A DNA stretch of 64,000 nucleotides from NCBI RefSeq assembly GCF_005116675.2, contig NZ_CP050699.1:5527001-5591000 (forward strand), written 5' to 3'. Source of the stretch: Desulfosediminicola ganghwensis (lineage in GTDB: Bacteria > Desulfobacterota > Desulfobulbia > Desulfobulbales > Desulfocapsaceae). The translations under genes were made by a program, and so were the position numbers. The notes under the pieces are model-generated. The model was not told the DNA's origin, did not search any database, and saw only the letters and a list, made by a program, of their open reading frames with translations. Numbering within the stretch: position 1 is the stretch's first letter; each line of letters begins with the position of its first letter. Shown here one piece after another: positions 31,693 through 35,561 of the stretch.

Positions 31693-32757
31693 TCAGCCCT
31701 TGCCCTCTTCGTCGACTCTTTTAATACCTTCCATGAGCAGTGCCATGAAATCGCCAATTTCGGCGGCGCGCATCTCTTTGGCTGACAATCCTGTAATGAA
31801 GCGATAGTAGCCACTCCTTTCGGCCAGAATTGCAAAAATCGCTTCCTGGCTTTCTTTGTCGCCATACGTGGCGTTGATAATACAACCTTCCCGGAATAAA
31901 ACCCGCGCCTCCCCACTATCAAGATTCATCGACAGCACGCCTGTTTTCTGGTGCATGTGAAACACCTGGAATAATTCAGCAGGGAGGACTTCGTCGAGTT
32001 TCCCGGTCATGCACGATTCGAAATCACGAGCACGAGCCTGGTTGATCTGTTGTAGTCTATTCGCCAAGAGGCGGGCCATATAACTCTGTACGGAGGATTC
32101 AGATTCGAGCATTTCGCAAAAATCCTCTATGGGTACAGTAAGGACCTGTGCATCATCCAGTGACCTCACGGTGGCAATTGCCGTGCCGGGACTCAAATAG
32201 CTCATCTCGCCGAAAATATCACCGGCAACAAGGGTTGCTATCTGCTCCCCCCTCGTTTCCACCGCAAACTCTCCAGTTACCACGAGATAGAGATTGGAGT
32301 TTTTGTCGCCCTGCTCTACCAGCACGGTATTACCCGGAACAACAACTTCCTTGAAGGATTTCAGCACCTGATGGAGTTTTTCAGGCGGGATGGAATGCAG
32401 GAATTGACTCTCAACGGTTGTACCGTGAATCTCCTGCATGACTGTCTCAACACGGCTATCGATATTTTCTTTTCCCTCTGGTATCCCCTGTACCGGTTCC
32501 TCGGCCTGCCTGAATTTAATCAGCCCGGTGCAACCGCTACAGCTATGTAGTTTAGGAGATATTTCTTTACGTCCTTTTCCAGCCTCGTTCAGCAAGGTGA
32601 ATAAGAGCTGGGTCATATCCCTGACCAGGATGAGACACACCTCCTTGCCAACTGGGCAAGTGAAGGTTTTGTCACTGAGTTGCATGAATTCACCCTGAGC
32701 ATACAGGGGGCAATTTATATCTTCTGCTATTTCAAAATAGGCTTTGAGGGATTTCAT
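31693..32757 (-). CDS. Regulator with Cys-rich head, cNMP-binding and PATAN (DUF4388) domains
   Basis: Protein of 354 residues. Residues 1-90: short domain with Cys16, Cys34, Cys41, Cys73 and Cys76 (CSGC), possibly metal or cluster binding. About 115-240: Crp-type cyclic nucleotide-binding domain (VLVEQGDKNSNLYLVVTGEF, GDIFGEMSYLSPGTAIATVR). About 250-350: DUF4388/PATAN (GKLDEVLPAELFQVFHMHQK, TGVLSMNLDSGEARVLFREG). No HTH, so it probably acts through protein contacts. It is divergent from the E2-domain gene. Only the domain order is clear; the signal and partner are not. Confidence 0.85.
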   Translation of the reverse strand: MKSLKAYFEIAEDINCPLYAQGEFMQLSDKTFTCPVGKEVCLILVRDMTQLLFTLLNEAGKGRKEISPKLHSCSGCTGLIKFRQAEEPVQGIPEGKENIDSRVETVMQEIHGTTVESQFLHSIPPEKLHQVLKSFKEVVVPGNTVLVEQGDKNSNLYLVVTGEFAVETRGEQIATLVAGDIFGEMSYLSPGTAIATVRSLDDAQVLTVPIEDFCEMLESESSVQSYMARLLANRLQQINQARARDFESCMTGKLDEVLPAELFQVFHMHQKTGVLSMNLDSGEARVLFREGCIINATYGDKESQEAIFAILAERSGYYRFITGLSAKEMRAAEIGDFMALLMEGIKRVDEEGKG

Positions 32758-32996
32758 AAATTTTACGACGAAGCTATCAGAGCAATGACCACAACAGCTT
32801 CAGGAATTCCGTGTAAGTGTTTTTTGCTGAATATTATACATGATTCACCGTTGATTGACCGACCACCTGAAATCAACCTTTCAATTCTCTGCACAACAAA
32901 TCACATCATAACCTTTTTATCATGGAGTTCGCAGGGTGAAATTGATATAGTAAGCGGAAATTATGATTTTTTTCTTAACTATATTATTTATTTGTG

Positions 32997-35561
32997 ATGA
33001 CTGTAGACAATCAGACGCTTGGTAAGCTGTTCTCTGAAATCGAGAACGAATTTCAACAGGACTCCGATATAACCATAACTCCTGTTGCAGGTGATCCACC
33101 AAACGAGTATGAGATTACCTTTCATATTCCTTGTACCACGAAGGATGAACAAGGTAACATAGAGATCACATCTGAACATGTGGTCAGCATGTCAATACCG
33201 TTTGGTTTCCCACACTTCCCACCAAGTTGCAAGCCGAAAAGCTCTATATTTCACCCAGACTTCGATAACTCCGCTGTCTGTCTTGGGGATTTCTGGAGCA
33301 ACACGCCTTCGCTGGTTGAGTTGATCCGCCACCTCAAAATGATGATTGGTGGGGAAAGATATTCCACACAGAATCCCTTTAACCCCGCTGCCGCTGACTG
33401 GTTCCTTGCCAATCAATCCCAATTGCCTTTTGCAAAAGAGTATGCTGGGGATTTAAAGCAGCCGCCACCCCTGGAACTTGAAAAAACAAAACAGGAGTTC
33501 GATGTAGTTCAGGATTCTGATTTCGCCGATGATTTCACCTTCGAGGAGGAAACCCTCGAATACAATCCACCAGACCAAAGCAACATTTCCCAATCCGTTC
33601 CTGTTGAGCAATCTGTACCAAAAGATATGGCGCCACGGCCATATATTCTCAGCGACATTGATCTCCAACGATTTAACCTTTTGGCATCAAAGAGACATTT
33701 TCAGGAACTGGACGCTGAACTGTCAGCGCTACCCGACACCGCAGACTCCAAAGAGATCAGACAACTTCGAAAAATTGCCTCTACAGCAATGGAGAAGGGT
33801 TCTGCTCTTCATCAGCAGGCTTTGCAATTACAGCAACAGGATGAACCGTCAAAAGCCCTTGAATGTTTCCAGGCGGTCGAAAAACACGTTGCAGACTTTC
33901 CCAATATCCTGGAGAAGATCAGTAAGATTGAGCATCTTTTAGAAAATGAAACCACCGAGCCAGACGATTTCAGTGACCTGCAGACAGATTTTGCTGTCGA
34001 TGCGCCTGTGGCTCAAAAGGTAGAGAGTACCCCCACTCGCAAAAAAAACGCCCCCCCAGTTACCAAACAAGCTTCAGTGCTAGAGCACAAGAAAGGCCGA
34101 AAGGGTAAACTGGCCGTGCCGAAGTTTAGCAGACCTCTCGTCTACTCCCTAGCCGGGCTGGTCGTAATAGCCGGTTCCGGGTTAGGCTTTCTTGCCATAA
34201 ACGGCTCAAGCAAGCTCGAACAAAGTCGATCTTTTTTGCAGCAATGCACTACCGCCGTAAAGAATCAACAGTTCCGTACAGCACAGAATGCCTGCCTGGA
34301 CTCCAGAAAAGCAAGCGATTCCATAATACTATTTCATCAGGCTGAGGTTGCCGCTTTACAGCAACAGATACATTCGGCACTTAACTCGCAGACCTTACAA
34401 CAGGGACTCAAGGGTAAGGTACTGTTCGAGGGAGAATACGTTCTCAAAGCTACAGTCTCGCAACGTCAGGAACTCATCCAGGTACTGGCCTCCGGCGAAA
34501 CCGCGTTCAGTGAATCCGATTGGCTTGCTGCCGAGACCAACCTTAGAAGAGCCATCGAACTTGATGATGACCTGAAGGTACTACCTGATGAAGAACTGAC
34601 CCGGCTTTCCCGACAAGCCGCTCATGCAGCTTTTATTGCCAAGCTGGAGGCGATAGAAAATGCTTTTCTTCAAGGGAATGATTCTGTTGATCTGGCCGCA
34701 CTTAACTCTTTAAGTGATGAACTCAGCTCGCTGCCTGCTGCAAGCGCTGCTCCCTTGCGTTCAAGGGTTGAAGTCATACTCGCCAAATATCAATTTTCTT
34801 CGCTGAAGAAGCAGGCAGATACCCTCTTTTCACAATCTGACTGGCCAGGTGCAATGTCGCTTTTCGCCAAAGCGGCCGAAACAGGCAAACTCCTCTCAGA
34901 GACTGAACCGCCAGAACTCACCGATATCAGAAAGAACATAACTCGAGCTGAACTTTACTCAAACATTGACGCCGGAAATAGTCTCTTTGCCGATGGCAGA
35001 TGGGACGATGCCATCAGCCACTACCAACAGGCCATTGCAATTCTAAAAAGCAGCTACCAGCTGCTCAATCAGGGAGATTATCAACATTCAGTTGAAAAGC
35101 TTGAGCGGATCATCCTGCAATCCACCATAATACGAGACCGTCAAGCGGTGGAAACACTGAGAGGAGAAGGTAAATTCAATGAGGCTCTGGACAAACTTGC
35201 TGTAGTCATGGCAAGTATCACCGGTAGCGCTTACGCTGATGAGGCTGAGTTTTCTGAGATTCTCACCGATGCCCGGGACACATCTCAAGAGTTGAAAAGA
35301 AAGGCCCTCCTTGATTACTGCACGACATACCTGGTGGAAAATTATTATTCCTTTGTAACCAGAAATTACGTTGCAGCCAGTAAAGACACCATTTCCTCGC
35401 CATCGGCCGAGTTCGTCAAAGAGCTCGACCCCAGCCATTATCTTTTTAAGCTTGAATGCACGGAAAGCGGGCGAGGACGTCCACTCAAGCTCGTAATGTA
35501 CTACTCATATGACCTTGACCAGGACAAATGGGAGTTTGCAAACGCCGATAGTTCGCAATAA
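32997..35561 (+). CDS. Membrane protein with E2 (ubiquitin-conjugating) fold and repeat-rich C-terminus
   Basis: Protein of about 854 residues of unusual make-up. Residues 1-150 match the E2/UBC fold: PFGFPHFPPSCKP, then IFHPDF, VCLGDFW with Cys95 at the place of the catalytic E2 Cys, a helix with LVELIRHLKMMI, and YSTQNPFNPAAADWFLAN, which parallels the E2 closing motif NPxxPxNxxAAxxF. A linker with charged helices follows, then one TM helix at about 378-402 (LVYSLAGLVVIAGSGLGFLA) behind a basic run (HKKGRKGK), so the E2 part is cytoplasmic. The remainder holds TPR-like repeats (SLFADGRWDDAISHYQQAIA). No E1, ubiquitin-like or JAB gene lies within the window. Start is ATG 32997 (or GTG 32994); no clear ribosome-binding site. 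Confidence 0.8.
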   Translation: MTVDNQTLGKLFSEIENEFQQDSDITITPVAGDPPNEYEITFHIPCTTKDEQGNIEITSEHVVSMSIPFGFPHFPPSCKPKSSIFHPDFDNSAVCLGDFWSNTPSLVELIRHLKMMIGGERYSTQNPFNPAAADWFLANQSQLPFAKEYAGDLKQPPPLELEKTKQEFDVVQDSDFADDFTFEEETLEYNPPDQSNISQSVPVEQSVPKDMAPRPYILSDIDLQRFNLLASKRHFQELDAELSALPDTADSKEIRQLRKIASTAMEKGSALHQQALQLQQQDEPSKALECFQAVEKHVADFPNILEKISKIEHLLENETTEPDDFSDLQTDFAVDAPVAQKVESTPTRKKNAPPVTKQASVLEHKKGRKGKLAVPKFSRPLVYSLAGLVVIAGSGLGFLAINGSSKLEQSRSFLQQCTTAVKNQQFRTAQNACLDSRKASDSIILFHQAEVAALQQQIHSALNSQTLQQGLKGKVLFEGEYVLKATVSQRQELIQVLASGETAFSESDWLAAETNLRRAIELDDDLKVLPDEELTRLSRQAAHAAFIAKLEAIENAFLQGNDSVDLAALNSLSDELSSLPAASAAPLRSRVEVILAKYQFSSLKKQADTLFSQSDWPGAMSLFAKAAETGKLLSETEPPELTDIRKNITRAELYSNIDAGNSLFADGRWDDAISHYQQAIAILKSSYQLLNQGDYQHSVEKLERIILQSTIIRDRQAVETLRGEGKFNEALDKLAVVMASITGSAYADEAEFSEILTDARDTSQELKRKALLDYCTTYLVENYYSFVTRNYVAASKDTISSPSAEFVKELDPSHYLFKLECTESGRGRPLKLVMYYSYDLDQDKWEFANADSSQ

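What the first reader, a model, noticed from the sequence alone, without database searches (positions are those of the whole stretch)
32997..35561. E2 (ubiquitin-conjugating) fold on a bacterial membrane protein with repeat-rich outer part
Seen: PFGFPHFPP, IFHPDF, VCLGDFW with Cys95, and NPFNPAAADWF in the order and spacing of eukaryotic E2 cores; one TM helix at about 378-402 behind a basic run; TPR-like repeats after it. Known: bacterial E2-like proteins are usually reported beside E1, JAB or ubiquitin-like genes (for example CBASS Cap2). None is present here; neighbours are a PATAN/cNMP regulator and kdsD. Inference: a free-standing E2-like cytoplasmic domain that signals or assembles with a periplasmic repeat domain, possibly a Cys95-dependent transfer without classical ubiquitin, or a scaffold that has lost the chemistry.
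Basis: partly seen in the sequence, partly recalled or inferred. Interest (0 to 1): 0.78.

Follow-up and report, generated by a model that had tools for sequence, protein, structure and literature searches.

The report
Membrane-spanning E2-like scaffold in sulfate reducers
Many sulfate-reducing bacteria carry, as an ordinary inherited gene, a membrane protein whose inner end is folded like a eukaryotic ubiquitin-conjugating enzyme, but no dedicated ubiquitin machinery was found beside it and relatives often lack the key cysteine, so it has probably become a protein-binding adaptor.

Summary
The 854-aa ORF at 32997-35561 has a real E2 (UBC) domain (PF00179 matched by 70 of 71 relatives; predicted structure Z 13.3 to UBE2S), one membrane segment, probably N-in, and a periplasmic TPR part with a small beta domain. 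The gene is widespread in the order (170 of 257 genomes) with conserved synteny; the own genome has a second copy without the cysteine. The conjugation idea fares badly: Cys95 is Ser in a same-genus homologue, changes at least six times on the tree, and is Arg in 31 of 31 newly read f12 genomes. The own genome has no Prok-JAB; an operon-type E1 appears only in one unrelated cluster, besides a MoeB-like match. A distant relative does sit with E1, RING and JAB genes, so capture from such a cluster is likely. The steadiest partner is the divergent Cys-rich/PATAN gene, beside it in 73 of 102 loci and five contexts. Best reading: a UEV-like transmembrane adaptor, a new variant of a known kind.

The parts
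32997..35561 (+). E2-TM-TPR protein, 854 aa (P0001)
32997..33434 (+). cytoplasmic E2 (UBC-fold) domain, residues 1-146
33198..33224 (+). PFGFPHFPP (P68, F69, G70, P72, H73, F74, P76 unchanged in 74 of 74 main-clade rows)
33252..33260 (+). HPD (residues 86-88) where classical E2s have HPN; unchanged in 74 of 74 main-clade rows
33279..33281 (+). Cys95, position of the E2 catalytic cysteine; 70 of 74 in the main clade, Arg in 31 of 31 newly read f12 genomes
33435..33662 (+). cytoplasmic linker (147-222), mostly low confidence, with a loosely conserved acidic motif near 168-176
33663..33950 (+). cytoplasmic helical, TPR-like region (223-318)
34137..34193 (+). transmembrane segment (381-399) after a basic stretch
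   Evidence: in 58 of 58 full-length rows one segment beyond residue 150 (earlier segments were not counted), K/R higher on its N side in 55, equal in 2
34203..35342 (+). periplasmic helical/TPR solenoid (403-782)
34245..34295 (+). stretch from Cys417 to Cys433 (57 of 58 each; both lost in L150), a likely disulfide
35343..35558 (+). C-terminal helix plus four-strand beta domain (783-854) with Cys821 (57 of 58)
31693..32757 (-). divergent partner gene, 354 aa: Cys-rich N-terminal region + cNMP-binding + PATAN (DUF4388)
32482..32757 (-). partner's Cys-rich N-terminal region (CPLY .. CLIL.R.MT .. CSGC.GLIKF), matched in 73 of 73 E2-linked partners found
31705..32007 (-). partner's PATAN / DUF4388 domain
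32758..32996 (.). divergent intergenic region shared by the pair
   Evidence: coordinates

Best explanation
A membrane-spanning pseudo-E2 adaptor. The N-terminal UBC-fold domain lies in the cytoplasm and works as a protein-binding module, as catalytically dead UEV and RWD domains do in eukaryotes (recalled); one helix crosses the inner membrane; the periplasmic TPR solenoid and its terminal beta domain bind an envelope partner, so that binding on one side positions or signals to the other. In most lineages the cytoplasmic partner, or its regulator, is the divergently encoded Cys-rich/PATAN protein, which carries a cyclic-nucleotide-binding domain in the window and in L149 but not in L264 and L266 (Pfam). 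Shown: fold (predicted), membrane segment, wide conservation with synteny, repeated change of Cys95, no JAB in the own genome, retained gene pair. Inferred: N-in topology, that the pair binds, adaptor/signalling role, periplasmic ligand (unknown).
For: E2 fold. Cys95 dispensable: in the main clade 70 of 74 Cys, with Ser twice, Tyr and His once; 38 of 138 columns change less often, 21 of them never; six or more changes on the 93-row tree; Arg in 31 of 31 newly read f12 genomes, which suggests a binding site rather than decay. Machinery: own genome Prok-JAB 0 and JAB PF01398 0; Prok-RING_1 0 of 58 (weak: no control rang); L164-type E1 at E 1e-25 or better only in G029's separate cluster and as a MoeB-like match in the own genome. 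Membrane. Partner: divergent in 62 of 74 public loci with 1.5 kb upstream, 73 of 102 loci in the wider set, in five contexts. At E below 1e-70 the partner occurs in 29 of 37 E2-bearing and 0 of 21 other genomes of the 58, though 28 of the 29 are one taxonomic family.
Against: Cys95 is kept in 70 of 74 rows of the window's clade, better than most columns, so it may do something there. Partner presence changes nine times on the tree while E2 stays, and f12 members L268 and L269 lack it, so it cannot be the only partner. JAB genes are not absent from the relatives: PF14464 matches in 31 of 58 at E 1e-3, over the cut-off in 17 of 58, among them 5 of 37 of the window's family, two of its genus. Binding is untested.
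Confidence: 0.5

Rival explanations
1. An active E2-like enzyme in the lineages that keep Cys95: it accepts a ThiS/MoaD-type protein from a housekeeping E1 (ThiF, MoeB or HesA-like) and passes it on at the membrane.
For: Cys95 70 of 74 in the main clade; own genome has five ThiF-family genes over the cut-off, one beside a 92-aa protein ending in Gly-Gly (no Pfam match); the nearest Cys-bearing outside relative (L164) has HPN and sits with E1, RING and JAB genes; JAB genes occur in some relatives.
Against: HPN is HPD in 74 of 74 main-clade rows; Cys changed repeatedly with the gene kept; no JAB in the own genome; no E1, JAB or Ubl recognised by eye beside the gene in the family loci whose neighbours I listed or among the conserved neighbours of the main block; the own ThiF genes lie in other contexts.
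Confidence: 0.15
2. An adaptor for ATP-dependent proteolysis: the E2 domain or TPR hands clients to Clp or FtsH-type machines.
For: Three separate contexts put E2 genes beside AAA+ genes: clpS-clpA before the paralogues L053, L055, L056 (Pfam on L053 only); an AAA-AAA-M41 fusion before the pair in L132, L142, L149 (Pfam on L149 only); clpB after the pair in L266.
Against: None of these genes is near the window's copy; no background rate for such neighbours was computed; each context may be one event.
Confidence: 0.12
3. A purely envelope-side scaffold (for secretion or wall assembly) whose E2 domain is only a structural cap.
For: Periplasmic cysteines 417, 433, 821 are kept in 57 of 58 rows, Cys95 in 54 of the same 58; synteny with secDF and kdsD.
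Against: The E2 domain is the better conserved part: mean column identity 60% (71 rows) against 35% over the full length (58 rows).
Confidence: 0.18

Closest known systems
E2-like proteins of bacterial E1-E2-JAB operons (Iyer et al. 2006, PMC1779556; passages and section 14 read) and of the cluster with E1, RING and JAB genes seen here in L164
   Same: UBC fold; L164's E2 has Cys and matches the family profile at E 2.6e-33
   Different: Those sit beside E1 and JAB; ours is free-standing, in conserved chromosomal synteny, fused to a membrane helix and periplasmic TPR, with HPD and an often replaced Cys
UEV / RWD domains (eukaryotic inactive E2 folds; recalled) and the cysteine-less E2-like domains of poly-Ubl operons (PMC1779556 section 14; PMC11354881 passages)
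   Same: E2 fold without catalytic Cys
   Different: The bacterial ones in print sit in poly-Ubl operons; ours does not, and part of the family keeps Cys
Tail-anchored eukaryotic E2s UBE2J1/UBE2J2 (recalled)
   Same: E2 domain on the cytoplasmic side of a membrane
   Different: They are active enzymes without a large domain across the membrane (recalled)
BilB (PMC11354881 passages) and the CBASS E2-E1 protein Cap2 (PMC10097602, search listing only; name recalled)
   Same: bacterial E2 fold
   Different: Defence operons with E1 and DUB; PADLOC gives no match to ours

Membership tests
E2 / UBC-fold superfamily | UBC sequence profile | tested here: met
   70 of 71 rows match PF00179 at E 0.01 or better; the window's domain scores 24 bits, under the 27-bit cut-off, the own paralogue 27.3, over it
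E2 / UBC-fold superfamily | UBC fold over the whole domain | tested here: met
   Z 13.3, rmsd 2.9, 129 aligned residues of a 153-residue model, UBE2S; Foldseek list all E2 by title; a prediction, not a solved structure
active ubiquitin-conjugating E2 | catalytic Cys conserved across the family | tested here: not met
   absent in 18 of 93 tree rows, six or more changes; Arg in 31 of 31 newly read f12 rows; present in the window itself and in 70 of 74 of its clade
active ubiquitin-conjugating E2 | HPN motif | tested here: not met
   HPD in 74 of 74 main-clade rows; that some active E2s lack HPN is recalled
active ubiquitin-conjugating E2 | cognate E1, Ubl and DUB | tested here: inconclusive
   no JAB in the own genome; strong Prok-JAB (E below 1e-20) in 1 of 37 genomes of the family, over the cut-off in 5 of 37; operon-type E1 only in G029 and a MoeB-like own match; housekeeping ThiF genes exist; no search for Ubl families was run
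active ubiquitin-conjugating E2 | thioester and transfer activity | not testable with these tools
   needs biochemistry
UEV-like pseudo-E2 | E2 fold without catalytic Cys | tested here: inconclusive
   true of the f12 members read, the own-genome paralogue and scattered others; not of the window protein
CBASS / Bil defence E2 | defence operon, mobile distribution | tested here: not met
   conserved chromosomal synteny, no plasmid match and no confirmed viral relative, no PADLOC match for P0001

The most novel reading that the evidence does not exclude
A transmembrane E2 that has left the ubiquitin pathway: captured from a bacterial cluster of E1, E2, RING and JAB genes, it became a standing envelope signalling receptor of these sulfate reducers, with the old active-site position re-used (Cys in f1, a fixed Arg in f12) to bind a partner or small ligand under control of a cyclic-nucleotide/PATAN protein.
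Probability: 0.3. Interest if true: 0.82.

Novelty: new variant of a known kind. Interest (0 to 1): 0.62.

Why it matters
Bacterial E2s in print, as far as I saw, belong to operon-bound conjugation and defence systems. A family that is near-universal in one bacterial family, with an E2 domain on one side of the membrane and a TPR solenoid on the other, would show the fold escaping conjugation in bacteria, parallel to eukaryotic UEV and RWD domains. It offers a testable series: the same protein with Cys and with Arg at the old active site.

Tried and rejected
Phage or plasmid cargo: tblastn on plasmids found nothing; the viral scan confirmed none of 47 pattern matches. Dedicated E1/JAB/RING; Prok-RING_1 rang in no control genome, so its absence is weak. 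JABs do occur in relatives (31 of 58 at E 1e-3, 17 over the cut-off); their identity was not followed except in G029. Link of partner loss with Cys95 loss: 3 of 12 against 1 of 56 loci, Fisher p 0.016, but phylogenetic pairs only 3 to 0, p 0.25, so not claimed. Faster E2 evolution without the partner: no difference. Fold of the periplasmic part: full-model searches were filled mainly by E2 rows, with a few TPR or repeat chains; the C-terminal beta domain is untested alone. Acidic linker motif by regular expression: 34 of 58, too loose. A script on the f12 stretches read none because of a bad pattern and was repeated (39 of 40 read, one f3 stretch not).

Print: searches showed me no description of this architecture; the held library lacks most subscription journals, and of the papers listed I looked into five only (PMC1779556, PMC11354881, PMC7159879, PMC7690835, PMC11580455; passages, plus section 14 of the first).

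Full report
What is there. Residues 1-146 are an E2 domain. PF00179 gives E 3.3e-5 on the domain (24 bits, cut-off 27) and matches 70 of 71 aligned relatives, best 2.7e-10. As a whole-genome search it rings in 33 of 58 relatives and 0 of 14 control genomes; the listed hits lie in this gene, its shorter paralogue, or one unrelated cluster in G029. AlphaFold2 on 71 rows gives pLDDT 90.2 and pTM 0.86. The 50 PDB hits listed by Foldseek are by title all E2s or E2 complexes; VIA-align gives Z 13.3, rmsd 2.9, 129 aligned residues for UBE2S.

Anatomy. The full model (mean pLDDT 84.5, pTM 0.50, so packing of the parts is unsure) shows E2, a low-confidence linker 149-214, a helical TPR-like region 223-318, a second low-confidence stretch to 387, a long helix from 384 that holds most of the membrane segment, a helical solenoid and a beta domain at 799-848. 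All 58 full-length rows have one hydrophobic segment beyond residue 150 (earlier ones were not counted); K/R counts are higher before it in 55 of 58, equal in 2, which by the positive-inside rule puts the E2 domain in the cytoplasm. Cys417, Cys433 and Cys821 are each kept in 57 of 58; L150 lost 417 and 433 together, L094 lost 821.

Distribution. 34 of 37 genomes of the window's family (f1) and 3 of 21 others of the order have the gene; in the order survey 170 of 257, of which f1 is 83 of 93 by my hand count; 12 of 395 over the phylum. The public genome scan confirmed 146 relatives and kept 80; the 80 titles name Desulfobulbaceae, Desulfocapsaceae and kin, a few Desulfobacterales or Desulfoarculaceae, or unnamed delta/proteobacterial bins; the other 66 were not shown. 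Most f1 loci share one block: secDF - Fe-S protein - HAD - partner - E2 - kdsD - metK - ahcY (several names by eye). Vertical inheritance is inferred from this. The own genome and five relatives carry a second copy of 528-537 residues (E2 - TM - TPR) with Arg or Pro at the Cys position.

Cys95. In a 94-row set it is Cys in 76. On a 93-row tree the label needs 7 changes, 6 forced by starred branches; the tree cannot tell gain from loss. In the 74-row main clade it is Cys in 70, Ser in 2, Tyr and His in 1 each; 38 of 138 columns change less often, and 21 of those never change, among them H86, P87, D88 and C78. Five other f12 members read earlier have Arg (3) or Ala (2). HPN is HPD throughout the main clade; the role of that Asn in the isopeptide step is recalled. 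A family that fixes Arg while keeping the gene argues for binding, not transfer. Against this, Cys95 is better kept than most columns in the window's clade.

Machinery. The own genome has no Prok-JAB or JAB hit. It has five ThiF-family genes over the cut-off, one with an in-frame TGA in the matched stretch: by context a thiamine-operon gene, a MoeB-like gene with a small Gly-Gly-ending protein beside an aldehyde-oxidoreductase-like gene, a HesA-like, a TcdA-like and a DUF6791-ThiF gene near transposase-like genes (ThiF and DUF6791 by Pfam for four of the five, other names by eye). Among relatives PF14464 matches 31 of 58 at E 1e-3, 17 over the cut-off; within f1 it is strong (E below 1e-20) in 1 of 37 and over the cut-off in 5 of 37, two of them same-genus. 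No search for ubiquitin-like families was run.

Origin. The profile finds two far relatives in the phylum. L164 (G392) is a 361-aa E2 with Cys and HPN and no TM segment, in a same-strand cluster with ThiF (E1), JAB, Prok-RING_1, FHA, DnaJ and AAA proteins; no ubiquitin-like gene was looked for there. L165 (G082) is a 1054-aa E2-TPR-TM protein with Asp at the Cys position. They join each other on the tree by long branches, so their place is unsure. Capture from such a cluster is the simplest inference, not shown.

Partner. The divergent neighbour in the window is Cys-rich region + cNMP + PATAN. Of 74 public loci with at least 1.5 kb upstream, 62 have it adjacent. In a 102-locus set, which includes 6 paralogue loci, 3 outside-family loci, several cut contigs and some loci of one genome or species, 73 have it, and the Cys-rich region scores in 73 of 73. 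It stays with the E2 gene in five contexts: the main block; beside an AAA-AAA-M41 gene in L132, L142, L149 (L143 shares other neighbours); beside clpB in L266; and the settings of L267 and L270. In several f12 loci and in f6 it is 201-234 aa, and Pfam on L264 and L266 finds PATAN but no cNMP domain. PATAN proteins in cyanobacteria are thought to link signals to the type IV pilus motor (PMC7690835, passages). Partner presence changes nine times on the tree while E2 stays, L268 and L269 lack it, and weaker homologues occur without E2.

How it most likely works. A non-catalytic, membrane-spanning adaptor: cytoplasmic E2 fold for binding, periplasmic TPR for an envelope ligand, in most lineages tied to a PATAN regulator. 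Confidence 0.5. The active-enzyme rival keeps 0.15.

Novelty. Inactive bacterial E2-like domains and E2-E1-JAB operons are in print (PMC1779556, section 14 read). A free-standing E2-TM-TPR family was not found in the searches listed under Tried and rejected. New variant of a known kind.

Noticed in passing
L265:6086-15576 (G132): An E1-like ThiF gene, an E2-like frame (PF00179 E 0.002, under the cut-off), a proteasomal-type AAA ATPase and two Pup-ligase genes stand together in a genome of the same phylum.
   Followed up: partly
L057:3425-5808 (G029): A separate small cluster of E1, E2 (Cys and HPN present) and a JAB match, in a genome that also has the E2-TM-TPR gene.
   Followed up: partly
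L179:5344-6669 (own genome near 800 kb): DUF6791-ThiF gene near transposase-like genes.
   Followed up: no
L149:5545-8013: 822-aa fusion of two AAA+ domains with an M41 (FtsH-type) peptidase, beside the partner/E2 pair in one clade.
   Followed up: no
L165:7253-10417 (G082): 1054-aa E2-TPR-TM protein with Asp in place of the Cys, beside a 473-aa TPR-like gene named by eye.
   Followed up: partly
L053, L055, L056; L051, L052, L054: The short E2 paralogue follows clpS-clpA in the first three and a recD2-like gene (named by eye) in the others.
   Followed up: partly
L263:8268-8750 and L264:3596-4078: A 160-aa gene sits between the HAD gene and the partner in two f12 genomes; the L263 copy has no Pfam match.
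   Followed up: no
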